This document shows, piece after piece, positions 50,687-64,000 of a DNA stretch of 64,000 nt (positions are counted from its first letter, which is position 1; each line of letters opens with the position of its first letter). The stretch comes from Flavobacteria bacterium BBFL7. GTDB taxonomy: Bacteria > Bacteroidota > Bacteroidia > Flavobacteriales > Flavobacteriaceae. The notes under the pieces were generated by a model. That model was not told where the DNA came from and made no database searches. It worked only from the letters and a program-made list of their open reading frames with translations. The translations under genes and the position numbers were made by a program. The stretch is from NCBI GenBank assembly GCA_000153385.1, contig CH672374.1, forward strand, positions 942,958-1,006,957, given 5' to 3'.

Positions 50687-51082
50687 GGGGTCGACTGGTT
50701 TTGACAGCGAGACCGAGTTAATTGTAAGCATGTAGAGCGCTGGGAAACAGCTCTTAAATCTCATTTTTCATCTTTTTTAAACGGCGAGAATAACTACGCC
50801 CTAGCTGCATAATCTGAATTATAGTAAGATAGTGCCTCGGTCTACTAGGTAGACAAGCAGGAAATCTCTCAGCAGCCTTGATTTACGGCGACTGATTATG
50901 GGATTTCGTAAAAGTAAATCTATCCTCATCAGGGCTTTGATGTTGAGGAGAAACTCGATTGAAGACAAGCGTTACTTTGGTAGTTTCTAACCGGTGTAAC
51001 GACTGAAATTAAATGGAAACTAAACATGTAGAAGGCCGTTAAATCGCTCGTTTGGACGAGAGTTCGATTCTCTCCGACTCCA
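50687..51082 (+). ncRNA. ssrA: Transfer-messenger RNA (tmRNA)
   Basis: The 5' GGGGTCGACTGGTTTTGACAG and 3' GAGTTCGATTCTCTCCGACTCC pair into the tRNA-like acceptor and T-arm; the discriminator A is at 51082 and CCA is not fully encoded. The tag reading frame (50783-50812) is GGC GAG AAT AAC TAC GCC CTA GCT GCA TAA, giving GENNYALAA. tmRNA with SmpB rescues stalled ribosomes and tags the incomplete protein for proteolysis. The 3' end is a favoured integration site, and the foreign island begins right behind it. Confidence 0.97.
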
Positions 51083-51088
51083 CAATTA

Positions 51089-51118
51089 GCCTCATAATTA
51101 ATTGATTATGAGGCTTTT
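51089..51118 (+). terminator. Intrinsic terminator of ssrA
   Basis: GCCTCATAAT / ATTATGAGGC, 10-bp perfect stem, loop TAATTG, then TTTT. Confidence 0.85.
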
Positions 51119-51443
51119 GTATTTTAAGGGGCGTATTAAGGGGCACAAAGTGTTGCTTAAAAAACTTAAATTATGAATGTTCTTATTAATATTTCTTGAT
51201 TATTATTATCATCTAAACACACAAACTTATTATTTCACATCTTAACAGCCGAATCTGTATATCAAATAGCTAAAGAGTTATCTGATAAGGAAATGTTATT
51301 ACTTCATAAAAAAGATAACCGCAGATGTGAATTTATATCAATCTCTTAAAAAGGTAAAAAAGAAGCATACAACAATAATGTCTAAAATAGAAATGCGTAA
51401 TCTTTTATTGCAAAACGTGTTTCATGTTAAAATCTAATTGCGC
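51119..51443. other. 325-bp island edge: tandem short repeats and gene remnant
   Basis: Contains TTAAGGGGC twice in tandem (about 51124-51142; ...TTAAGGGGCGTATTAAGGGGC...), which resembles arm-type binding repeats beside integrase attachment sites, and the decayed small gene listed separately. No integrase gene and no intact protein frame are visible. Confidence 0.5.
51245..51437 (+). pseudogene. Frameshifted remnant of a small island-associated gene
   Basis: One frame reads TAESVYQIAKELSDKEMLLLHKKDNRR and stops. A +1 shifted frame continues SLKKVKKKHTTIMSKIEMRNLLLQNVFHVKI and ends at 51437. Joined, these resemble the short helical proteins (LSDKEL... then ...LLxNVF) found near HTH_17 genes in Bacteroidetes mobile regions. 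There is no ATG at the front. Identification is from memory of the pattern and is tentative. Confidence 0.4.
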
Positions 51444-51725
51444 TTATCTATACTGAACTGCTTTCTTCAAATCAGCCTTTAAATAATAGATTTTATTTCC
51501 TAACCTACAAGATTTTAAAACACCCTTATTAGTCCAACTCCATAAGGTAGTTAAAGATATGCTGAAGTATTGAGCTGCTTCTTCTCTTGTTAAGTAAGTA
51601 TCATGATCTTTACTTTCTTCAACTTGATCTAAATACAGTTTTATCTTAGGCATAAGTTTTTCAGATATAGCTTCAGCTAATTCCCCTACAGTAACGTCTT
51701 GAATTTGTATAAATTTAGTCTCCAT
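51444..51725 (-). CDS. Excisionase/MerR-like helix-turn-helix protein (HTH_17)
   Basis: 93 residues. An N-terminal helical coiled-coil-like stretch (VTVGELAEAISEKLMPKIKLYLDQVEESK) precedes the DNA-binding domain TREEAAQYFSISLTTLWSWTNKGVLKSCRLGNKIYYLKADLKKAV. This is typical of the small DNA-binding genes of integrative elements. It is 36 bp downstream of mcrC on the same strand and may act as excisionase or regulator of the element (inference). Confidence 0.88.
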   Translation of the reverse strand: METKFIQIQDVTVGELAEAISEKLMPKIKLYLDQVEESKDHDTYLTREEAAQYFSISLTTLWSWTNKGVLKSCRLGNKIYYLKADLKKAVQYR

Positions 51726-51761
51726 GGCATTAAAGTTTTAATTAATTTAATTCCAATAAAA

Positions 51762-53012
51762 TTAATTAATTCCTAAAACCATTTCTATTATCTCGTGCCC
51801 TAGCATATCATTAAGGTTATTATCTCTCTGTAAAACGCTAACAAACCCCATTTTACACTGATGATCTATTTCAGAAGTTTCATCATTATCTTGTTTTGAG
51901 TAATCATCTGTTAGATAAGACATGAACTTGTTTTCAGTGTAATCACCTGGGTATAACAACATGGCCTTCTCGGCATCCCAAAAACGGCAATAAGTATACA
52001 TTTGTCTTAGGTCATTTACAGATGCAGTACTTTTATTAGGTCGTTTCCATTTAGTATCGATTATATAGGTCTTTCCGCTTTTGCGTAGTACAATATCTGG
52101 ACGCAAACTATTGTTAGCCCAAAACGATTTAGATTCTTGTCCTGAAACTTCAATTTCAAAACCTATGCTGGCTTTTTGTAGTTGCTTCAAGATATACGTT
52201 TCCCACAGTTCATTCATATCAAAAAGTAAAGACAACATTTTTTCTTTACCACTAGAAATGTCAGGTGAATAATTAAGAATAATCAGTCTAGCTAATTCTA
52301 GCGCGTTCTTGTAACTTAACGTTTTTCGATTTAAGCTCATCTCATTTAGGTGCTTTGCAGTAATTGCTTTGTTGTCCACTTCTGGAAAATTTAACTGTAC
52401 CCGACTTGCTAAATCTTGTAATCTAGATCCGTTGGTGAACTGGCCAACAATAGCCAATGCTTTACTTAAAACTTGGTGTAAAAAATGATTACTATCATAA
52501 ACTTGGTGTGTTGTGTAAAAACGTTCTTTATGGACGATGTTACTTTTAATATGACCTGCAAACTCTAGCTTTCCTTTTAATGCTTTGGTATTTTTAGTCT
52601 GCTTTCTATATTGTTTAATCAGGCCTTTGCGTACCAAACTTTCCAGTTCTTGCAAATACAATTCAAAATAAACTTCCAACAAATTAAGGTGCTGTCTTTT
52701 TACATTAGCCGCCCCTGAAGAATCCGCTTTCAGCTTGCCACAAGCTTGTAACATTTTTAATAGGACACCTTTCCACTTATTATCGTCGTCGTCTTTATCT
52801 GCTTTAGGATGAATCTCTATAACTAATCCATCTACCTGAATCACCCCAACATATTGATTGAACTTGATACCTTTTGCTATAGGTTCAAAGTAATTCCCAT
52901 CATGGTATTCATTAAGTTTTAGCAATGCGTTTAAATGCGTGGTTCTAAAACCATGCTCGCCTACATAGAGTCGTTGATGTTCAAAAACAGATATGGTTTT
53001 AAGATGTTTCAA
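51762..53012 (-). CDS. mcrC: McrC-family restriction nuclease subunit
   Basis: 416 residues. The N-terminal McrC domain (ISVFEHQRLYVGEHGFRTTHLNALLKL...VGVIQVDGLVIEIHPKAD) is followed by the C-terminal PD-(D/E)xK nuclease: Asp306 in LRPDIVL, Asp319 and Lys321 in YIIDTKWK. McrC is the nuclease partner of the McrB AAA+ motor and cuts modified or foreign DNA. It starts directly after the mcrB stop with no gap, as in known McrBC operons. Confidence 0.95.
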   Translation of the reverse strand: MKHLKTISVFEHQRLYVGEHGFRTTHLNALLKLNEYHDGNYFEPIAKGIKFNQYVGVIQVDGLVIEIHPKADKDDDDNKWKGVLLKMLQACGKLKADSSGAANVKRQHLNLLEVYFELYLQELESLVRKGLIKQYRKQTKNTKALKGKLEFAGHIKSNIVHKERFYTTHQVYDSNHFLHQVLSKALAIVGQFTNGSRLQDLASRVQLNFPEVDNKAITAKHLNEMSLNRKTLSYKNALELARLIILNYSPDISSGKEKMLSLLFDMNELWETYILKQLQKASIGFEIEVSGQESKSFWANNSLRPDIVLRKSGKTYIIDTKWKRPNKSTASVNDLRQMYTYCRFWDAEKAMLLYPGDYTENKFMSYLTDDYSKQDNDETSEIDHQCKMGFVSVLQRDNNLNDMLGHEIIEMVLGIN

Positions 53013-55982
53013 TTAATCGCCAGCTTCGATATCGTTTTTACCTAACAAAAGAATTACAGCGTCTATGATAGAATCACTATCAACTGATTTTAATATAAAA
53101 CTTGGAGTTTTAAAATCTTCAGAGTTATCGTATTTAAAGTCCGCAAAACTAATTTGTTTATTCTCCTTTTTCTCAACAAAACCTTTTCCAAGTACTAAAC
53201 CAATTTTACCATAATCGCCGTAGAAATATTCTTGTAGTAACGGCACTATTTTATTATTGAAAGCATTTGCTAACTTCTCTACGGTATCTACACCTACAAA
53301 GTACGAATGTCCTATGGTATGGTCTCTATCGATGAGTAATTCTATTCGCTCATTGATTGTTTCTAAAACTTCAGAAAGTTTAATGTCATTGACCTTCTCA
53401 TTTTCTATTACGTTATAATTTGGCATCATTTCTTTAAACTCAAAACGTCGTCTTAATGCGGTATCTAGTGCTTCTACGCTCCTATCTGCAGTATTCATAG
53501 TACCGTAAATATCTAGGTTTGATGGAACACTAAATTCTTTTTTTGAATATGGTAACTTTATAGCAAGTTCATTTTTACAACCTTTACGCTTATCAGTTTC
53601 TATTAGTGTTATCAACTCTCCAAAAATTGCAGATACATTTCCTCTATTAATTTCATCAATAAAAATGGCATAGCGATTTTCAGAATCGTTCTTAGCTCGT
53701 ATACAAAGTTCTTTAAAAACTCCATTTTCAATTTTGTAGCCTAAATCAGTAGTTTCTTCACCTTCATCTGGTGAGATAGGTTTTATTCCTTCTATAAAAT
53801 CTTCGTAAGCAAATGATTGGTGAAAAGTTACAAAATCATAGTTCTTAATTACTTTTTGAGGATTGCTTTTAAAGTTGTTTACATCGTCTAAAACATCAAA
53901 GATTTCTGGGCTTTGTTCTTTTACCTCCTCATTTAATAATTGCCAAGTCTTATCATTAGTTTTATCAAAAATCAAAGGGTTCTGACGTTGTTTATAGGCT
54001 ACATTTTCAGATTCTTGAATGGTATGCATTTGCAAAGTACCCCAGATAGTAGCTCTTACGTTTTTAGATTCTGACAGCTCAGCTTTAGTAGCAACCCATC
54101 TGTTTTCTAAAATGTCATTAACCTTAGAAGTACCTATCTCGTTTAATGCTAAAGCTATTACTTGCCACCAAGTCAAACCTGTTATTATTTCTTCAAAGTA
54201 TTTTTCTTCTGTTATAGCTTCTTCTTTTAAAGTGTACTTATCAAACAGTTGTTCCTTTAAATAATACGTTTTACCTGTTCCTGGAGGACCATAAAAGATT
54301 TGGTTGAGTGCTCTGTTATGTTTAGCCTTAGACATATTTTCATTTTCAAAATATTCAGAACTAATAGTGGTTATTTTCGTTCTATAGTAAGGTTCTAGTA
54401 TTAGTTGATTCGCAAGGACGTATTCATTTTTAGGAATTTGATCAAAAGTACTATTATTATTAGGCGTCCACCATTTACTTATGCCGTTGTACTTTTCTTG
54501 TTTAATAGGTTTAGCTATTGTATTAAATTTTCTATACTTCCAGCCATCATCTTTAGAAGCTTTAAACTCTGGGCCAGTATCAAGCACGGCAGATGTAATT
54601 CTACCTAAAAGACCCATTTTCTCATTGCTATAGCATACATAAATGTAGTCTCCTTCTTTTAATTCATTTTTAAATAAAAGATATTGTGACCCAGCTCCGC
54701 GTCCTTTACCACTCGTCTTTTCATGCATCGCAACATATCCTTGCTCCATGAAGTGATCAAAATCATTAACTAAAAAGAACTCTTGCCCTAATGAAATTTT
54801 ATAGATGTGGTTTTTGGATAAATTAATACCTTTATTATTACTTTCAAGAAAAGTTTTCAACGCCCTTACTGACGCCGAATAAAATCCATTTTTACCATAA
54901 GACGGGGCTTTATCATAATAATAATCGCCTTGAACATTTTTCTGCTTTAGAATTAAGTCGTCGTATAAATATTGAAGATTTTCAAGATTTTCTTCTAAAT
55001 AGAGATCGTCATCCAAAATTTCATTTAAAATGTCTATTGCTCTTAGATAAGAACTAATTTTATTACTATTCTCTTTTCCTTTCAACCAATCTGAGAACTC
55101 TTTTTTAAGGCCTTTAATTTCCATTGTAGCTATTTTCCAGAGTTCACTTGTATAGTTAAAATAATCTTGTTCTGGTTTCTTCTTTTCTAAAATCGCTTTA
55201 TGGTAATCTGAGGCATAGATCAAATTTTCCAAAGGAAGATCAAGATGGTTTCCAATTGTTTTCAAAACTTTCTCTTTGAAAATATTTAAGGAATTGAAGT
55301 CGCCATATAGAAAAGCTATTTTCCACTTATATCCATATCCTAAGTCTACATCATCAATCACCTTTAAGTCATTGCGCTGGGCAGCTAGAGCTATTTTAAT
55401 GATAATGCTTTTAACAGTTCCAAATGCTTCCTCTTTGGTCTTTTTCCCATACTTTTTGAACCATGCATAATCACCATCAGTAGTGCGATTACTTTCCCCT
55501 TTAACTTCACTTTTACTGTTGCGCTTATATATTCCAAACTTATATGAACTACCACCAACTATACTTCCTAATTCTCGAGTAACATGTTCGACCTCATAAC
55601 AAAAAGAGTTCTTGTCTAAATTTGTGTATTCTGTTAATGCCATATTCTCCAACCGATCCAATGGCCATGTTTCAAGGAATCTCTTTTTAAGTTCGTATAA
55701 TTTTTTATTAGGTTCTTTTCTTAATTTTTCAATTATCTCAAAACCATTTCTTTCTAATGCTTTGAAGCAATCCTTATTTAGTCCTCCTTTAAAGTAGTTA
55801 TCAACAGCTCGACCAGTTGCATGATAGTTAGCATAAGCCATAATAGCTTTTGGTGGATATAATTTTCCTTCATGATGAACGTCATAAGTGGAAGAAGGGC
55901 CAAAACCGTCTGGGTATCCTTTTTCCTCGTAATCTTTGATTCCTTGCTTTATGTGTTGCGCTGTTACTTTATCAAATTCCAT
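53013..55982 (-). CDS. mcrB: McrB-family AAA+ restriction motor with two N-terminal reader-like domains
   Basis: 989 residues. Residues 1-85 (FGPSSTYDVHHEGKLYPPKAIMAYANYHATGRAVDNYFKGGLN) resemble the N-terminal head domain of ScoMcrA-type enzymes. A helical middle follows. About 385-510 reads as an EVE/PUA-like modified-base-binding domain (NELKEGDYIYVCYSNEKMGLLGRITSAV). The AAA+ motor has Walker A FYGPPGTGKTYYL (about 563), Walker B YAIFIDEINRGN (about 773), the McrB motif MNTADRSVEALDTALRRRFEF and a C-terminal lid. It hydrolyses GTP or ATP to power McrC. The substrate modification is unknown. Confidence 0.92.
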   Translation of the reverse strand: MEFDKVTAQHIKQGIKDYEEKGYPDGFGPSSTYDVHHEGKLYPPKAIMAYANYHATGRAVDNYFKGGLNKDCFKALERNGFEIIEKLRKEPNKKLYELKKRFLETWPLDRLENMALTEYTNLDKNSFCYEVEHVTRELGSIVGGSSYKFGIYKRNSKSEVKGESNRTTDGDYAWFKKYGKKTKEEAFGTVKSIIIKIALAAQRNDLKVIDDVDLGYGYKWKIAFLYGDFNSLNIFKEKVLKTIGNHLDLPLENLIYASDYHKAILEKKKPEQDYFNYTSELWKIATMEIKGLKKEFSDWLKGKENSNKISSYLRAIDILNEILDDDLYLEENLENLQYLYDDLILKQKNVQGDYYYDKAPSYGKNGFYSASVRALKTFLESNNKGINLSKNHIYKISLGQEFFLVNDFDHFMEQGYVAMHEKTSGKGRGAGSQYLLFKNELKEGDYIYVCYSNEKMGLLGRITSAVLDTGPEFKASKDDGWKYRKFNTIAKPIKQEKYNGISKWWTPNNNSTFDQIPKNEYVLANQLILEPYYRTKITTISSEYFENENMSKAKHNRALNQIFYGPPGTGKTYYLKEQLFDKYTLKEEAITEEKYFEEIITGLTWWQVIALALNEIGTSKVNDILENRWVATKAELSESKNVRATIWGTLQMHTIQESENVAYKQRQNPLIFDKTNDKTWQLLNEEVKEQSPEIFDVLDDVNNFKSNPQKVIKNYDFVTFHQSFAYEDFIEGIKPISPDEGEETTDLGYKIENGVFKELCIRAKNDSENRYAIFIDEINRGNVSAIFGELITLIETDKRKGCKNELAIKLPYSKKEFSVPSNLDIYGTMNTADRSVEALDTALRRRFEFKEMMPNYNVIENEKVNDIKLSEVLETINERIELLIDRDHTIGHSYFVGVDTVEKLANAFNNKIVPLLQEYFYGDYGKIGLVLGKGFVEKKENKQISFADFKYDNSEDFKTPSFILKSVDSDSIIDAVILLLGKNDIEAGD

Positions 55983-55984
55983 AA

Positions 55985-58900
55985 TTATTGAGGTGTATTT
56001 GCTTCCTTTTGAAATGTTAATCTAGGTAGTACGATTTTATATTGCTTATCATCTTCTTTATTGTACCAAAACACAACATATTCTACACGAGCAGAAGCAA
56101 GTTTATATCCATGCTTTAAAATCCGATTATACTTATTTTCAATAAAGCTATTTGAATACAATAATAAATTGCCTCTTTGAGATTTTTTAAGACCTGGCTT
56201 TTTAATACTACCTATATCCATTTCGTCTTCTTGTAGTAGTTCCCCTGTTTTAATATTCTGTAGTATTCTTAGTGCATTTGAATAATTTTGAGAACCTAGC
56301 CGGACATCTTTATGACTTAAAATAATATCAAATTGGTTAGGAGGTTCAAGTTTACCAGTATATTCTAATTTGGAAATGTAATCTGCATTGCTGGCATCAT
56401 AAAAAGGCACATTTGAATGAATATGCAAGGTTTTTTTAGCTCTTGAACTTGCGACATATAGTAATCGTTTAGATTCGTCACTGGAATAATTATAGTCCTT
56501 GAGAACGATAAATACATGGTCAAACTCCTTACCCTTCGCTTTATGCATAGTGGACACAATTATTTTATCAGAATCAGGCAAAATTGCATCTTCCATATTA
56601 ATTTCTCTGCTATATTCTCTCCAATCAACTAATAGTTTCTTTTCAGGATTTACGTAGTCGAATTTTTTAATTAAATCCAAACATGTATTATAATGCAATG
56701 AGTCATGAAAATGTCGTTTAAACCAAGAAATAGCCTCTTCCCAATTTGATTCTAATATTATGCCTGATTCACCAATCGATTGCTTCAATCGATTGTCAAA
56801 AGAATTAATTTCAAAAAGATCCGATACACGGAACCCTTCAAAACCAGCTATTAATCTTGTTGCTACTCCAATTTTATTCAACAAAGAACTAATTAATAAA
56901 GCCTCCATATTAGTTCTAGTCAAAATGGCTTTTGTTCCAGGTAATTTAGTATTGGCAATGTATTCAGCTGTAGGTTGTTCTATAAACTTCCCATTATATT
57001 TTGTTACATGAACACTACCACCACTTCTACTCTTCCCTGCAATTAACAATTGAGATTTAAGTCTGTTTTTTAAATAAAAAAGAACTTTGTTATTGAAATC
57101 AACTATTTCAGGGAAGCTCCTATAGTTTTTTGGTAATGTGTAAAGAGTTGCTCCATAATGTTTTCTGAACTTACTCATGAAAGCATTTGAAGATCCTCTA
57201 AAACTATAAATGTTCTGATCATCATCTCCTACTGCAATTACCCTAGGATTTTCAGCTTTTTGTATTATCAAATCAATTAAATCCCATTCATCCTTATTTA
57301 TGTCTTGAAACTCATCAAACATCAATATGCTTTTATTTTCAATTTGTGATATATCAATATCTCCATTTCTTATGGCTTTGATACAATCCTTAATGACATT
57401 TTGGGATTTATAAAGATCACCTAATTGACCTAATAGTTGAAAGCAAAAGCCATGAAAGGTATTTATATTTATTAATCCTGAATATTCAGGGATTAGTTTC
57501 CTAACACGTTGTTTAAATTCTAATGCCGCAGCTTTTGAAAAAGTAAGCATCAAAAACTGTTCTGGTTTAATATCCTCAATTAATAATAAACTCGCAATCT
57601 TGTGCACTAATACCTTAGTCTTACCACTTCCAGGACCAGCATACACTAAAATTTTATCTGATTTGTTATCATTGATTACTTGAGTTTGATCAGTGTCTAA
57701 ATCCCCAATAATTTCAATAAACCGCTTTGGTGTTATTGATCGTTGAATTTCCCTTTTCTTCCTTGGGAAATATCTTGCCAAAAACTCTTCATAATCGAGC
57801 GTAAAATAGTCATTGACGTAAGTTAAAGCTGATTCATAATTTTCAACACATTTTTTTGCATACTCTCCTACTATGTGAATTTGTTCCGTACGGTGGAGAT
57901 AAAATTCTTTCATTTCTTCATAGTCCTTAACCGTAAAAGTTATCCTTTGAGTATCAACCTCAGATATGTTAAGCTTATTATAGGAAACCATAAAGCCACC
58001 TTCTAATTTAATTGCTTTAATATCATTTAAGTATAATAAACATAGCTCATACTTTTTAGTATTTTCTTCAATGAGCTTTCCCATAAACTGGTTAGACTCT
58101 TTTAGCTCGATTAAGCTAAATGATACAGGTACTTCTTCTTTCTTTCCTTGGTGTTGGGCGTTAGTCTTTGCTAGATTCTCTAAATAATCAAATGTTGACA
58201 AAGTGAGCGCATGCCTCCATTTTATATCTTCAAGTAAGCGATCTTTATTATAAATGTTTATTTCATAAATATCTTTTTCCTTATCTTTTCTACTTTTCTT
58301 TACGAATCTATTCTTGTCCCAATAGGTTAAAATCAACCTGATATGTTCAACATTTGATTCTATTACACCATCATCTAAAAGCCTTTGATTGAGCTCCCTT
58401 AAGGGAATAGTAATTTTGTTAGATTTGATTTGGGATAATAAGGCTTTCTCAATTTTTGTAACTCTCTCCAGTATTTTAGCTGAACTATTTTTAGATTGAA
58501 GAATATTTAAAAAGGCTGTCAAATCTTTAGCATCACCCAAAATTGCATGATCTCTTAATATGCGAATAACATCTTGTATCCTGTGTGCGTTGAGTTGTGT
58601 AATGTCTGCCAGATAATCTACTCTTGTTTCGCGGTCTGTAATGATTCTTTTAAGTACCGTTGCGCAGTCCTTCTTATCTTCTTCTGTAATTCGTTTACTA
58701 CTTCGTAAAATATCTTGTCCACTACCAAAACTTTTTACTAGCAGACTATCTGCAAAAACTCTAGGTGTATTTAAGGACCGAGTTAAAAACCCTTGGTTTT
58801 CGAGAGCTGAAATGGCTGTCTTTACTTTTGTTTCGAGATCTAACATCTCAGAATCCCAACCAGACTTCTTTGCAATCTCTAAAGCGGACTGACTTATCTT

Positions 58901-60802
58901 ACTTCTATATTTTGCTTTACCTTTTATAGCGCGCCATATATCTTTAATTTCTTTGTGATTCAGCTTGGTTTGTTGCAACAAGCTGAAATGTTTATTTAAA
59001 TCTTCATCACTAAATAAAATGTAACACTTCGCCTGAATACGTTCGTCTCTACCTGCTCGCCCAGCCTCTTGAACATAATTTTCTAAAGAGTCTGAGATGT
59101 TGTAGTGAATAACCGTCTTGACATTATCCTTATCTACTCCCATACCAAAAGCAGATGTTGCTACTATTATTTCCTTGGCCTCTCTCATGAAGAGATCCAT
59201 GTTTTCTTTCTTTTGGTCCTTATCTAATTTGCCATGAAAAAAGGTAGCATCAAAACCAGCTTCATTTATCAGTAAAGCAATTTCTTCTACACGTTTGGTT
59301 CTTGAAGCATAAATAATTACTGGTTTTTCACAAGTTTCAAGAATAGGTAACAAATGAGCCATTTTTCTATCAGCATCTTCAACGTTAACTACTTCATAGG
59401 ATAAGTTGGTTCTTCCCTTGCTAGTGATGTATTCATTTAACTCTAACCCTAATCGATCTTCAAAATAAAATTTGATATCTGTGATAACCTGAGGTTTAGC
59501 AGTAGCCGTAAAACAGGAAACAGGTATTTGAAAAACATTTTTCTCTTTTTCGATTTTCTTGATGAAATCTGCAATAAAGAGATAGTCCACTCTGAAGTCT
59601 TGTCCCCAACTGGAAAAACAATGTGCTTCATCTATAACAAATCTTCCTATAGATCTAGAATGTATCAAACGATAAATCGATGGAGATCTTAGAGACTCTG
59701 GCGATAGATACAACAAATCTGCTCTACCATCAGATACCATTTCAAAAGCTTCTTGACGTTCTAAAGGTGATAATAAACCATTAATCGCAACAGCTCTAGT
59801 GATACCAAAACGATCTCTTAAATTATCAACTTGATCTTTCATTAAAGAAATTAATGGAGAAATAACTACTGTCAGGTGCCTCGTGCTCGAGCCTCGCATT
59901 AAGGCTGGTAATTGAAATGTCAAAGACTTACCGCCACCAGTAGGAAATACGGCTACAAATGACTCTCTAGTTAATCCAGCTCTTACCGCTTGTTCTTGCA
60001 AGCTAATCACTCGATTTTCTTCAAATTTTCTAAAATCAGAATAGTTAAAGTATTCTTGTAAGGCTTTTTTAGGGTTTAATTGATTTTGACAATAGCTACA
60101 ATTTGTATCATCACATGCATTAAACCTAATTTGATTAAGTATGCGTTCTGCCTCTGGAAATTTGTGCTGCACCCATGGTGGTAATACAGCATCTTTATCG
60201 CCTAATTTTAATAATGTAAAGACGTACGATAATTCGACAGAGTTCTTTTCACTAAAGCGTTCTAATTGAATATTACAGCAAACAGTCTTTCGTAGTAATT
60301 CATCGATGCTGGTTTTTTCTACATCATTGTCACTGAAACCAACCAAATCAAAAAATGCATTAAATGAAGATTGATCTTTTAATAATTTATAATAGACACT
60401 TTTCTCAGGATCACTTAAATCATTAAACCTGTTGAGTTCTTTGATTAAATAATCCTCTGTGAGCTTACAATCTGAAAGTGGATTATTAACTTCTGATGGA
60501 TTTATAATCCTATACCCTTTGGTAAGTTTGTGATTAGGGCGCTTTACAAAGAGCAATGGTGACCATAATAAGGTGTCTACATATTTTTTGTTTTGAAAAA
60601 TGGAATCACCTAGCTGCTTTTTGAGCTCAGGAATGTCGTGCGCTATGATATTATGACCACAGATATACGTTGCCTCTTTGATCCACTGCTCCAATTTAGC
60701 TGTATTTCTTGCATGTAATTCTTGCCCATTAAAAACAGCGCCATAATCGACGCTTTTGCTTTTAGGGTTGGTTTCTATATCAAGAAAAAGAATATCTTTC
60801 AT
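55985..60802 (-). CDS. Giant fusion: DEDD exonuclease + RecQ helicase + UvrD-type helicase
   Basis: 1605 residues in one uninterrupted frame. Residues 1-130 are a DEDD 3'-5' exonuclease (FLDIET with Asp8/Glu10, HNIIAHD Asp56, VDTLL Asp76, Asp111/Asp117). A Cys cluster CDDTNCSYC (230-238) precedes the RecQ helicase: Walker A PTGGGKS (287-293), DEAH 391-394, TATAKP and QEAGRAGRDER. A winged-helix-like stretch (about 640-860) follows. From about 1080 comes an SF1 UvrD/PcrA helicase: Walker A AGPGSGKT, LTFSKAAALEFKQRV, FDEFQDI, GDDDQNIYSFRG, and STMHKAKGKEFDHVF. It ends 2 bp before mcrB. It probably unwinds and degrades foreign DNA. Known components, unfamiliar arrangement. Confidence 0.9.
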   Translation of the reverse strand: MKDILFLDIETNPKSKSVDYGAVFNGQELHARNTAKLEQWIKEATYICGHNIIAHDIPELKKQLGDSIFQNKKYVDTLLWSPLLFVKRPNHKLTKGYRIINPSEVNNPLSDCKLTEDYLIKELNRFNDLSDPEKSVYYKLLKDQSSFNAFFDLVGFSDNDVEKTSIDELLRKTVCCNIQLERFSEKNSVELSYVFTLLKLGDKDAVLPPWVQHKFPEAERILNQIRFNACDDTNCSYCQNQLNPKKALQEYFNYSDFRKFEENRVISLQEQAVRAGLTRESFVAVFPTGGGKSLTFQLPALMRGSSTRHLTVVISPLISLMKDQVDNLRDRFGITRAVAINGLLSPLERQEAFEMVSDGRADLLYLSPESLRSPSIYRLIHSRSIGRFVIDEAHCFSSWGQDFRVDYLFIADFIKKIEKEKNVFQIPVSCFTATAKPQVITDIKFYFEDRLGLELNEYITSKGRTNLSYEVVNVEDADRKMAHLLPILETCEKPVIIYASRTKRVEEIALLINEAGFDATFFHGKLDKDQKKENMDLFMREAKEIIVATSAFGMGVDKDNVKTVIHYNISDSLENYVQEAGRAGRDERIQAKCYILFSDEDLNKHFSLLQQTKLNHKEIKDIWRAIKGKAKYRSKISQSALEIAKKSGWDSEMLDLETKVKTAISALENQGFLTRSLNTPRVFADSLLVKSFGSGQDILRSSKRITEEDKKDCATVLKRIITDRETRVDYLADITQLNAHRIQDVIRILRDHAILGDAKDLTAFLNILQSKNSSAKILERVTKIEKALLSQIKSNKITIPLRELNQRLLDDGVIESNVEHIRLILTYWDKNRFVKKSRKDKEKDIYEINIYNKDRLLEDIKWRHALTLSTFDYLENLAKTNAQHQGKKEEVPVSFSLIELKESNQFMGKLIEENTKKYELCLLYLNDIKAIKLEGGFMVSYNKLNISEVDTQRITFTVKDYEEMKEFYLHRTEQIHIVGEYAKKCVENYESALTYVNDYFTLDYEEFLARYFPRKKREIQRSITPKRFIEIIGDLDTDQTQVINDNKSDKILVYAGPGSGKTKVLVHKIASLLLIEDIKPEQFLMLTFSKAAALEFKQRVRKLIPEYSGLININTFHGFCFQLLGQLGDLYKSQNVIKDCIKAIRNGDIDISQIENKSILMFDEFQDINKDEWDLIDLIIQKAENPRVIAVGDDDQNIYSFRGSSNAFMSKFRKHYGATLYTLPKNYRSFPEIVDFNNKVLFYLKNRLKSQLLIAGKSRSGGSVHVTKYNGKFIEQPTAEYIANTKLPGTKAILTRTNMEALLISSLLNKIGVATRLIAGFEGFRVSDLFEINSFDNRLKQSIGESGIILESNWEEAISWFKRHFHDSLHYNTCLDLIKKFDYVNPEKKLLVDWREYSREINMEDAILPDSDKIIVSTMHKAKGKEFDHVFIVLKDYNYSSDESKRLLYVASSRAKKTLHIHSNVPFYDASNADYISKLEYTGKLEPPNQFDIILSHKDVRLGSQNYSNALRILQNIKTGELLQEDEMDIGSIKKPGLKKSQRGNLLLYSNSFIENKYNRILKHGYKLASARVEYVVFWYNKEDDKQYKIVLPRLTFQKEANTPQ

Positions 60803-60911
60803 AATTTACCTTCTTCAAAAATCAGTAAGAATATCTATGCTTTGAGTAATTTTATATCGATCCTTTCTTCCTTGAGGTTTATTTATTCGTATGCACTAGT
60901 GATTCATTCCT

Positions 60912-61301
60912 CTATTTATTACTTTTCTTTTCTCCTGTCCCAATATGTTTTGGACATAGAAGTCCAGCTGAAAGAGCTTCCAAAAGTGAACGTTCTCTGG
61001 CATCAGCTATTTCTATAAATTGAAATTTACCCCAACCTCTTAATGCAATTTTATTTAACTGCATATACAATTTAGAGAAAGAAGACCTATTACAAACATG
61101 ATCTTGTAATCTTTGGTTTAATCCATTTCGAGCACCATTAGTTTTTCCAACATGTAAAACAATATTATTATTATCATAAACAATATAAACTCCCTGATTA
61201 AGACTAACATTTACTTTACCAATATAAGGAAAGACGTAACATTGAGATTGCAATAATTCATGATGTAGTCGTAATATTTTTTGTTGTTCATCTTCTTTCA
61301 A
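60912..61301 (-). CDS. GIY-YIG nuclease domain protein
   Basis: 129 residues. The GIY-YIG fold is visible: GVYIVYDNNNIVLHVGKT (37-54, with VGK in place of YIG), Arg64 in NQRLQDH, and catalytic Glu108 in ARERSLLEALSAGLL. These are the catalytic residues of the family, so it is predicted to be an active DNA endonuclease. It follows the HNH gene by 14 bp and precedes the RecQ-UvrD gene by 109 bp. A stand-alone small GIY-YIG in a defence operon is unusual. Confidence 0.85.
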   Translation of the reverse strand: MKEDEQQKILRLHHELLQSQCYVFPYIGKVNVSLNQGVYIVYDNNNIVLHVGKTNGARNGLNQRLQDHVCNRSSFSKLYMQLNKIALRGWGKFQFIEIADARERSLLEALSAGLLCPKHIGTGEKKSNK

Positions 61302-61315
61302 CTTTGTTAATTTAT

Positions 61316-62314
61316 TTAATCAATTTTCATTTTTAATTCTTCTAGTATATCACGTTTCATTTTACTTAAAGGACGTTTATGAAAATCTTTCTCATCTGGG
61401 TATACACCAAATGCTAATCTATATAGCTCTTTTACCGTAATTCTTTCTTTCGTCGGATTTAATATCTTCCGCAAATTCAATAGGTAATTCAACGAATATC
61501 TTTTCTTAAGTAAGATTAAATCATCGAGCTCATCTTCATGAGTTTTATATATTTCTTCTAGCTTAAATGCATTAATTGTCTGATCTTCTTCTGAACCTAT
61601 AACTCTATTTATTTTAAACTCTTGTTTCGCATAGGAATTTAACCTGTAAGAAAATTTCATTTTAATATCAGAATGAATGTATGGATGAATCATAGTATCA
61701 ATATTGAAATCGACATCACCTTTTAAACTACTATTACAAATATTGCAACTAGGTATTAAGTTAAAGAAAGAAAGTGCCAACATAGGATAACGTGATTTGG
61801 GAAACCAGTGATCAAATTGAGGTCTTGTGGTTTTATGAGGCTTTGTTACAGTCTTAGTATATATCCTATTACAATAGACACAAGTTTGGATATCCAAATT
61901 GTCCGCAAGATGATATGCACTATATTTTTTAATTGTTTTTGCAGTAAACTTAGAGGACTCAATAGAATGGGAATACCTAAATATCAAATTTAATTGCCTT
62001 TCTAACAGTTGATACTTATCAAACAATGCTATCTCTGCGGGATTATCTCTAGTTCTCTTTTTTAGTAATAGATATTGGTTCCATTCTGCAAAGGAATGAC
62101 TTGGAATATCATTTAAAAAATTTTCATTTAAATCGATTAAATCTCTAGGCTCTGAAATTAATAACTTAAGTATTCTATCATCTGTAAAAAAGTCTCTAAT
62201 TTCAATTGGAACTGAAGCATGAGATTTGAATTGATTAATTCGAACAAGCATATCTCTCTTATGAATATCAAGAGCATGTAATATTTTATGAGAGTTTTTA
62301 TCTAAAAATATCAT
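61316..62314 (-). CDS. HNH endonuclease (PtuB-like) paired with an AAA ATPase
   Basis: 332 residues. HNH core at about 136-190: CVYCNRIYTKT...RPQFDHWFPKSRYPMLALSFFNLIPSCNICNSSLKGD, with zinc Cys pairs CVYC and CNIC, the catalytic His in FDHWFPKS and the Asn in FFNLIPSCN. It starts 2 bp after the ATPase gene, the arrangement of Septu-type ptuA-ptuB pairs. It is predicted to cut DNA or RNA when released or triggered by the ATPase. Confidence 0.9.
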   Translation of the reverse strand: MIFLDKNSHKILHALDIHKRDMLVRINQFKSHASVPIEIRDFFTDDRILKLLISEPRDLIDLNENFLNDIPSHSFAEWNQYLLLKKRTRDNPAEIALFDKYQLLERQLNLIFRYSHSIESSKFTAKTIKKYSAYHLADNLDIQTCVYCNRIYTKTVTKPHKTTRPQFDHWFPKSRYPMLALSFFNLIPSCNICNSSLKGDVDFNIDTMIHPYIHSDIKMKFSYRLNSYAKQEFKINRVIGSEEDQTINAFKLEEIYKTHEDELDDLILLKKRYSLNYLLNLRKILNPTKERITVKELYRLAFGVYPDEKDFHKRPLSKMKRDILEELKMKID

Positions 62315-62316
62315 AT

Positions 62317-64000
62317 CTATCTTTTTAATAATCTCTGCAAATACTCGGTTTCTTTCTCAATCATCGCCTGAATAAACTGATTATCTGGCTTAACTTCATA
62401 TAGCATTTCCATAAGTTTCCTCTTGAGGACCGGTTCTTCTATAATTGCGATAATATTTTTATAATGCTCGTAGTCTTCTATAACAATATCTCCTTTTTTA
62501 TTGACATTACTATTTATCCATTTGATTGTTTCATTAATTTTAGATAAAGCAAAATCGCCTATTAATTCATCATCAAGGAAGAACGAATCAGCCAATAAAT
62601 CCGAAACATTCGCTGCAAACGATTTTTCTGGTCTATCACCTGCTTCAAGAACAAACGTTTTTCCTTTGTTTCTATTAAGATAAAGTATGTTATAATTTGG
62701 AATATCACTTAAACTGATTGGGTCATGAGTAGAAAAAATGATCTGAGCTGTACAGTCATTTTTCTTAAAAAAGTCTTTGCTAAACTCAATTAATGTAGCA
62801 ACGAATGATTTTTTCCAAGCGGGATGGTACCCCATGTCCACTTCATCTAGAAATAAAATGTAATGAGATTTTTTAATTAATGATTTATTTCTGGAAAGAT
62901 TTGTATTGAAAAAATCATACAGTTTGCTGTAAAACGATAACATTGCGGTTTCTCCAGAGCTCAAAGCTCTCTCAGCAAAAATTGGATTGACAAAAGTTTG
63001 TAGATGAGAATATGATTGAACAATAGTATCTTGTTCATCATTTACTTTTAGAAAGTAATTTGGTATTGCTGCCAGGAGTTCTTCGTTCAAATCAAGTAAC
63101 TCATTTAGCGCCTTTTCTTTAAAAAACAAAGAGTAAGAATTCCAATTAAGCACATTTCCTTCATCCTTTGTAAAATCGTCAGACTCTATGTAATTAAATA
63201 GAAATTCCAAAATGTTTTTAATTTCTTTATTTGGCAGAACATTTTTGTCAATAGTTAAAAACGAATGATTTTCTAGAAAATATAAGAATTTCATATAAGG
63301 AGAAAGGTCTGATACTTCTATATGCTTAGCTTTTCCACTATCATCCATTCGACCGTAATCCTTTTTGAAAGAATGAGTTTCTAAAAGAGTTACTATTAAA
63401 CAGAAAGCATCCATTAATAGAAAATTTTTAAATTTTTTCTTATCCTCATTATATCCAGTGGGTCCTCCTAAACTTATTTTACTAAAAGAATCGTATTCTC
63501 TACGTATATCTAAGAATATGGAATTTAACAAACTTCGAAAATCTCTAGGTGTATTTTTAAAACTTATACCTTGAGTCGTTGCATTAATTTTATGTCTTGT
63601 AAATACAACTTTAAACAATTTATCACTAAGAAGGCTATATCTTTTATTTATAGAGGTGGCAACGGAACTTCTTTGAAAATTAATAAATCTCTTATAGTTT
63701 TCTCTTTTCAACCTTTCCGATATAATCACTTTTTTATTAGCATCATACGTAGAATCTATATTTACAAGATCTTGTGACAAGTATCTATCAGCACTTATAT
63801 CAATACCTGCCATTGGTAATTTATGATCCAAATAAGGTGAGTAATAAATTGACTCAAAGCTTAAATCTGGTTCAACTTTATAGGAAAAATTCACACAATT
63901 AGGTCTAGTGTTCCAATTATAATTGTGGATAATAACTTTATGTCCCTTTTCGAAAATTAAAAATCCAGATTTATATCTATCGTTTAAAAATTCTATTATG
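62317..64000 (-). CDS. AAA/ABC-type ATPase (PtuA-like), N-terminus off the right edge
   Basis: At least 560 residues. A GTG at 63894 could start a 525-residue protein, but the frame stays open to the window edge (FLNDRYKSGFLIFEKGHKVIIHNYNW...), and the Walker A is not in the visible part, so the gene continues to the right. Visible motifs: signature ERALSSGETAMLSFYSKLYDFF, Walker B HYILFLDEVDMGYHP and the H-loop IIFSTHDPISLSD. This is the OLD/SMC-like ATPase half typical of Septu-type systems, coupled to the HNH gene. Confidence 0.87.
   Translation of the reverse strand, partial: IIEFLNDRYKSGFLIFEKGHKVIIHNYNWNTRPNCVNFSYKVEPDLSFESIYYSPYLDHKLPMAGIDISADRYLSQDLVNIDSTYDANKKVIISERLKRENYKRFINFQRSSVATSINKRYSLLSDKLFKVVFTRHKINATTQGISFKNTPRDFRSLLNSIFLDIRREYDSFSKISLGGPTGYNEDKKKFKNFLLMDAFCLIVTLLETHSFKKDYGRMDDSGKAKHIEVSDLSPYMKFLYFLENHSFLTIDKNVLPNKEIKNILEFLFNYIESDDFTKDEGNVLNWNSYSLFFKEKALNELLDLNEELLAAIPNYFLKVNDEQDTIVQSYSHLQTFVNPIFAERALSSGETAMLSFYSKLYDFFNTNLSRNKSLIKKSHYILFLDEVDMGYHPAWKKSFVATLIEFSKDFFKKNDCTAQIIFSTHDPISLSDIPNYNILYLNRNKGKTFVLEAGDRPEKSFAANVSDLLADSFFLDDELIGDFALSKINETIKWINSNVNKKGDIVIEDYEHYKNIIAIIEEPVLKRKLMEMLYEVKPDNQFIQAMIEKETEYLQRLLKR

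What the first reader, a model, noticed from the sequence alone, without database searches (positions are those of the whole stretch)
55985..60802. One polypeptide with exonuclease, RecQ and UvrD helicases
A single 1605-residue frame carries a DEDD exonuclease, a Cys cluster, a full RecQ helicase and a full UvrD/PcrA helicase. Two helicases of different superfamilies (SF2 and SF1) plus a nuclease in one chain functionally mirrors RecBCD. Placed 2 bp upstream of mcrBC, it could process DNA ends made by McrBC, or open modified DNA for it. All visible catalytic motifs of the three units appear intact. I do not know a named defence system built on this fusion.
Basis: partly seen in the sequence, partly recalled or inferred. 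Interest (0 to 1): 0.82.

Follow-up and report, generated by a model that had tools for sequence, protein, structure and literature searches.

The report
Exonuclease-RecQ-UvrD protein on mobile defence island
One bacterial protein that joins a DNA-trimming enzyme to two different DNA-unwinding motors sits in a mobile cluster of anti-virus genes; relatives with the same three parts occur in several bacterial phyla, and it probably acts on foreign DNA by itself rather than as a partner of the neighbouring McrBC genes.

The parts
55985..60802 (-). Exonuclease-RecQ-UvrD fusion, 1605 aa
60338..60802 (-). DEDD-fold exonuclease core (residues 1-155); D8, E10, D56, D111; Asn106 at the usual His/Tyr place
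60089..60280 (-). Four-Cys site C175/C230/C235/C238 (residues 175-238), probably zinc (inferred)
58949..60067 (-). RecQ-type SF2 helicase core (residues 246-618), Walker A, DEAH, QEAGRAGR
57737..58948 (-). Middle region (residues 619-1022), conserved in the family, unassigned; helix-strand units in the model could be winged helices (inferred)
   Evidence: barely tested by the fold search
56357..57736 (-). UvrD/PcrA-type SF1 motor (residues 1023-1482), 1B insertion mostly missing
55988..56356 (-). C-terminal beta-rich stretch (residues 1483-1605), unassigned
53013..55982 (-). McrB-like protein, 989 aa (neighbour, not a conserved partner)
51762..53012 (-). McrC (Pfam McrBC), TTG start
60912..61301 (-). 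GIY-YIG domain protein
61316..62314 (-). HNH protein, PADLOC candidate PDC-M62B
62317..64000 (-). AAA ATPase, PADLOC candidate PDC-M62A; runs past the window end (638 aa in all, L057)
51444..51725 (-). 93-aa ORF at the ssrA end of the island, HTH/excisionase-like by eye only (no family search run)
50687..51083 (+). ssrA (tmRNA) gene, integration site
51067..51086 (+). Left end: 20-bp direct repeat at the ssrA 3' end; the second copy lies 27,493 bp away (extended position 78560), beside an integrase gene outside the window

Best explanation
A stand-alone, horizontally spread accessory DNA-processing enzyme, most likely an anti-invader (phage or plasmid) effector. Inferred mechanism: it binds a 3' tail, gap or fork in foreign DNA through the Cys module and the middle region. 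The RecQ core and the UvrD motor, both expected to move 3'-5', open the duplex and strip bound proteins, either in tandem on one strand or in opposite directions from a gap. The N-terminal DEDD-fold domain trims the freed 3' ends, so incoming or replicating foreign DNA is unwound and degraded. It needs no dedicated partner; neighbouring restriction systems may supply ends. Shown: the architecture, conservation of motor and acidic nuclease residues, the predicted exonuclease fold, lack of a conserved partner in the loci held, patchy occurrence, and residence in a mobile island. Inferred: substrate, polarity, nuclease activity, defence role.
For: Three modules in 56 of 58 aligned rows, the other two being cut. 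Patchy: 8 of 299 same-family and 15 of 395 same-phylum genomes, own genome included in both. Window copy in a 27.5-kb integrative island at ssrA with McrBC, type I RM, AbiH, PDC-M62 and an integrase; empty site in 1 of 5 congeners fetched. At least 15 of 47 loci have a recognised defence gene nearby. 71 neighbours of 20 loci match 146 PADLOC models at 1e-15, against 6 models for 78 control proteins from 20 arbitrary regions of 9 genomes. Exonuclease fold like DinG/DnaQ. The host has three other RecQ-type genes.
Against: No phage test exists. In 32 of 47 loci no defence gene was recorded (most of their neighbours were not scanned singly); annotated plasmid copies stand beside parAB, toxin-antitoxin or metabolic genes. 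The figure of 146 counts models, not proteins, and is inflated by redundant type I models (at most 2 of 71 members match any listed model). The nuclease may be weak or inactive (Asn for His/Tyr; one relative also has V at D111). GC of the gene (0.329) is like its surroundings (0.340). Relatives on predicted viral contigs also fit a role serving the element.
Confidence: 0.5

Rival explanations
1. A mobile-element replication, recombination or transfer factor: the enzyme serves the plasmid or island that carries it (fork restart, conversion of incoming strands) rather than attacking others.
For: Matches in 24 plasmid records (15 of them fetched, each with an ORF of 1564-1894 aa), some solitary near parAB or replication genes. 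9 of 58 loci from predicted viral contigs carry relatives reaching beyond the RecQ part, with integrases for 3 of the 10 neighbour proteins scanned, out of 62 listed.
Against: At least 15 of 47 loci are near defence genes; no conserved replication partner; only 24 of 72,556 plasmid records at E 1e-60, and none of 50,697 phage records holds 80% of the query.
Confidence: 0.25
2. An auxiliary host repair enzyme (WRN-like) for stalled forks or broken ends, shuffled by islands.
For: WRN-like order exonuclease-RecQ; DinG-like exonuclease, and B. subtilis DinG is implicated in replication stress (PMC12525004, abstract and passages).
Against: Patchy distribution; family labels need 4 changes on the tree, 3 forced, as transfer would give; residence in an integrative island.
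Confidence: 0.12
3. A dedicated McrBC partner that processes ends made by McrBC.
For: 2-bp spacing in the window; mcrBC in 4 of 47 loci although McrC occurs in only 13 of 100 family genomes, so co-location exceeds random placement.
Against: No mcrC was found in the other 43 of 47 loci (iterated HMM from the window McrC, E 1e-5; a distant McrC or one beyond the flanks could be missed). The layout differs: downstream same strand, upstream same strand twice, downstream opposite strand. 4 changes on the tree. Other defence genes are neighbours too, as island clustering would give.
Confidence: 0.06
4. A host-killing or growth-arresting effector set off by infection, like the RecQ-like helicase RqlH/PsyrT that needs a partner to restrain it.
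For: The PADLOC PsyrT model matches the RecQ core; RqlH is described as genotoxic (title of PMC4670107, seen only in the listing).
Against: No conserved neighbour that could be an antitoxin.
Confidence: 0.07

Closest known systems
Human WRN (DEDD exonuclease + RecQ helicase)
   Same: Order: N-terminal DEDD exonuclease then RecQ core (WRN layout recalled); WRN chains are among the PDB matches to the RecQ part
   Different: No RQC/HRDC match here; an added SF1 UvrD motor; bacterial mobile island
Gram-positive DinG (DEDD exonuclease + XPD-like helicase)
   Different: DinG's helicase is XPD-like (PMC12525004, passages); here RecQ-like plus UvrD
RecBCD / AddAB / AdnAB
   Different: No PD-(D/E)xK nuclease by Pfam; a RecQ motor; one chain; accessory rather than core gene
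Gabija GajB
   Same: UvrD-type helicase in defence islands; partial HMM hits
   Different: GajAB stands as a separate system beside one family member (L019); no GajA-like part or partner here
CoCoNuT / McrBC systems
   Same: McrBC next door; Type II and III CoCoNuTs carry an SF1 helicase (PMC11090510, passages)
   Different: That helicase is UPF1-like; RecQ, UvrD and DEDD do not occur in that paper's main text

Membership tests
RecQ family helicase | TIGR00614 above curated cut-off | tested here: met
   252.3 bits against 219.8
RecQ (bacterial equivalog) | Full RecQ, TIGR01389 above cut-off | tested here: not met
   308.6 against 640.2; only profile 3-348 of 591 matched
UvrD/PcrA-type SF1A helicase | UvrD N and C motor halves with Walker A, DExQD, GDDDQ, TxH motifs | tested here: met
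UvrD/PcrA | 1B insertion domain | tested here: not met
   35 residues where the UvrD profiles have about 113 positions
DEDD exonuclease | DnaQ-like fold | tested here: met
DEDD exonuclease | Four acidic residues in motifs I, II, III | tested here: met
   D8 and E10 56 of 58, D56 57 of 58, D111 55 of 58 with one V and one C; the rest gaps in cut rows
DEDD exonuclease | His or Tyr in motif III | tested here: not met
   N106: 52 N, 4 S, 1 K, 1 gap of 58
McrBC partner | Conserved linkage to mcrBC | tested here: not met
   4 of 47 loci (plus window), 4 changes on tree
RecBCD/AddAB | RecB-type PD-(D/E)xK nuclease | tested here: not met
   No such Pfam hit at E 0.01
RecBCD | Motors of opposite polarity | not testable with these tools
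   Needs biochemistry
Known PADLOC 2023 defence system | A model that spans the architecture | tested here: inconclusive
   The best 25 of 64 matched models are partial helicase hits (DpdF, PsyrT, C3a193, RTasHel, GajB); the other 39, all weaker, were not shown
Named system in later catalogues (DefenseFinder etc.) | Listed architecture | not tested
   Not on hand; paper searches found none
Anti-phage system | Lowers phage plating | not testable with these tools
   Experiment needed

The most novel reading that the evidence does not exclude
A single-protein immune enzyme not found in the catalogues I could search: a DEDD-fold nuclease with Asn in place of the usual base, coupled to an SF2 and an SF1 motor of the same polarity, so that one chain unwinds foreign DNA in both directions from a gap or fork and trims it. 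Mobile islands and plasmids have spread it across at least five phyla.
Probability: 0.35. Interest if true: 0.75.

Novelty: new variant of a known kind. Interest (0 to 1): 0.55.

Why it matters
If true, a widespread gene now annotated only as a 'RecQ family' or 'UvrD-helicase domain' protein would be a one-gene defence with two motors of different superfamilies and a nuclease in one chain. That could be tested at once by cloning one gene, and it would add a WRN/DinG-like logic to bacterial immunity. It also shows that adjacency to mcrBC alone can mislead.

Tried and rejected
McrBC partnership: rejected on 4 of 47 loci and the tree.

Conserved partner: none seen. The largest neighbour cluster spans 5 of 45 loci, among 461 neighbours of at least 100 aa within seven genes.

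RecBCD analogy: not adopted (polarity from established knowledge; no PD-(D/E)xK hit).

Phage origin: 25 of 50,697 phage records match, in and around the RecQ part only. The single-protein scan of viral contigs found no relative. The profile scan found 58 loci, 9 of which (L082-L090) reach beyond the RecQ part; L087 lacks the N-terminus and L089 is cut. The exonuclease-profile scan added L142.

Middle region (619-1022) and C-terminus: barely tested (whole model pLDDT 79.7, pTM 0.57), so no fold is claimed.

In print: ten counted searches listed nothing on this fusion by title and abstract. Passages only were read of PMC11090510, PMC12458937, PMC5512222, PMC12525004 and PMC6390638.

Empty site: of 5 congeners fetched, only L252 matches the right flank; in L253-L256 nothing right of ssrA matched it, and L254 and L255 show short matches to island-interior sequence.

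Rows dropped: L026 (gene split in two ORFs) from the alignments; L087 and L089 from the trees; short-flank loci L001, L009-L016 and L035-L048 in favour of longer ones (L009 lies on the same contig as L018 by length). The second tree left out 18 of 58 rows, 16 of them distant. L078 (exonuclease only) and L081 (split) were not aligned. Alignments A4 and A5 were not folded.

Full report

DISTRIBUTION. Relatives at E <= 1e-100 occur in 8 of 299 same-family genomes and 15 of 395 same-phylum genomes, the own genome included in both; all listed matches cover nearly the whole query. Ten loci came from the one species-genome scan, which used narrow peptide patterns. 24 of 72,556 plasmid records match at E 1e-60, 4 of them over at least 80% of the query in one place; the 15 that I fetched each hold an ORF of 1564-1894 aa. 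Nine of 58 loci from predicted viral contigs reach beyond the RecQ part. Pseudanabaena and Deinococcus plasmids hold more divergent forms of the same layout. Annotated members are called 'RecQ family ATP-dependent DNA helicase', 'ATP-dependent DNA helicase RecQ' or 'UvrD-helicase domain-containing protein'. The host has three other RecQ-type genes at 37-39% identity, so this is not its only RecQ.

NEIGHBOURHOOD. Of 46 loci other than the window, mcrC was found in 3 (L017, L018, L064; iterated HMM from the window McrC), hence 4 of 47; flanks were about 7.5-12 kb and in several loci cut by contig ends, so this is a floor. Layouts differ: in the window mcrBC follows the fusion by 2 bp; in L017 and L064 mcrBC precedes it, by 159 and 112 bp; in L018 it lies downstream on the other strand. 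On trees of 56 and 40 rows the label needs 4 changes, at least 3 forced, and all 500 shuffles are as low, so it is not clustered. McrC occurs in 13 of 100 family genomes, so 4 of 47 exceeds random placement, as expected in defence islands. No neighbour family recurs in more than 5 of 45 loci. Thirty large or adjacent neighbours, chosen by me (29 from family loci, one from a viral contig), were scanned with PADLOC at 1e-5 and 12 matched: type I and type II RM, Gabija GajA and GajB, HerA and DUF4297, a DUF262/SspE-like protein, PDC-S39, and two partial hits; 18 did not. Counting loci with a recognised defence gene gives at least 15 of 47: window, L017, L018, L064 (McrBC), L019 (Gabija), L023 (type II), L024, L033, L056, L059, L060, L066 (type I; L056, L059 and L060 by clustering with scanned L024, and L033 by annotation), L025 (HerA-DUF4297), L077 (DUF262-like), L029 (CRISPR I-D by annotation). 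Most neighbours were not scanned singly. Against it, the Bacteroides, Aliarcobacter, Sulfitobacter, Microvirga, Rhizobium, Cereibacter and Calothrix plasmid copies show no RM, CRISPR or like system in the annotation, some only toxin-antitoxin genes. Control: 71 neighbours (up to four nearest of 250-1299 aa in each of 20 loci) match 146 PADLOC models at 1e-15, of which 25 were shown, with at most 2 members each; 78 proteins from 20 arbitrary regions of 9 genomes (8 of those genomes and the window's own) match 6 models. These are models, not proteins, and type I subunits inflate the figure.

THE ISLAND. A tmRNA gene (ssrA) ends at 51083. A 20-bp stretch of its 3' end (51067-51086) recurs exactly at extended position 78560, 175 bp beyond a tyrosine integrase gene. 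Between the repeats lie, in order, the 93-aa HTH-like ORF, McrC, McrB, the fusion, GIY-YIG, HNH and AAA (PDC-M62B/A), HsdS, HsdM, AbiH, HsdR, a plus-strand ORF, DUF3987, small ORFs and the integrase; of the 18 ORFs listed all but one are on the minus strand. In the congener with 98% identical ssrA (L252) the left flank to 51085 runs straight into sequence matching 78560 onward, so the 27.5 kb are an insertion relative to it. The other four congeners fetched do not match the right flank. Gene and genome GC do not differ notably (0.329 against 0.340).

MECHANISM. Established knowledge: RecQ, UvrD/PcrA/Rep and DEDD exonucleases act 3'-5'. Two like-polarity motors on opposite strands would move apart from a gap; in tandem on one strand they would reinforce each other. 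Neither is RecBCD's logic. I propose that the protein enters at gaps, tails or forks of foreign DNA, unwinds it, strips proteins and trims 3' ends. Architecture, conservation and mobility are shown; substrate, polarity, activity and defence are inferred. The Asn in motif III leaves open that the exonuclease is slow or only binds 3' ends.

KNOWN SYSTEMS. The 25 best of 64 PADLOC 2023 hits are partial helicase matches. The McrBC/CoCoNuT census paper (PMC11090510, passages) has no RecQ, UvrD or DEDD in its main text. Four papers in the library hold both 'RecQ' and 'McrBC', none on this subject by title and abstract. Later defence catalogues were not on hand, so 'not catalogued' is limited to these sources.

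VERDICT. Real, conserved, mobile and under-described; not an McrBC component. The defence role is the best-supported reading at about 0.5. Interest 0.55.

Noticed in passing
window 50687-64000, continuing outside the window: A 27.5-kb integrative island at the ssrA 3' end, with 20-bp flanking repeats, an integrase and an empty site in one congener.
   Followed up: yes
window 60912-64000 and L057:870-11757: Type I RM genes (HsdR, HsdM, HsdS) are interleaved with AbiH, a PDC-M62A/B ATPase-HNH pair and a GIY-YIG protein on one strand with gaps of at most 104 bp; PDC-M62 may belong to a type I system.
   Followed up: partly
window 53013-55982: The 989-aa McrB-like protein has a long N-terminal part that matches the PADLOC PD-T4-1 model at residues 89-273.
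   Followed up: no
L078:5980-6579: A 199-aa exonuclease-only relative of the N-terminal module next to an AbiEii toxin-family gene on a Sulfurospirillum plasmid.
   Followed up: no
L061 and L062 (one genome, G237): Two closely related copies of the fusion about 41 kb apart on one contig.
   Followed up: no
L026:5106-9918 and L081:5866-10709: Family members split into two ORFs, in a MAG and in a Deinococcus plasmid.
   Followed up: no
L256:4055-4115: In congener G682 a second ssrA-tail-like sequence lies about 1.8 kb downstream of ssrA, suggesting that the site is reused; L254 has short matches to the island's HsdS region downstream of its ssrA.
   Followed up: no
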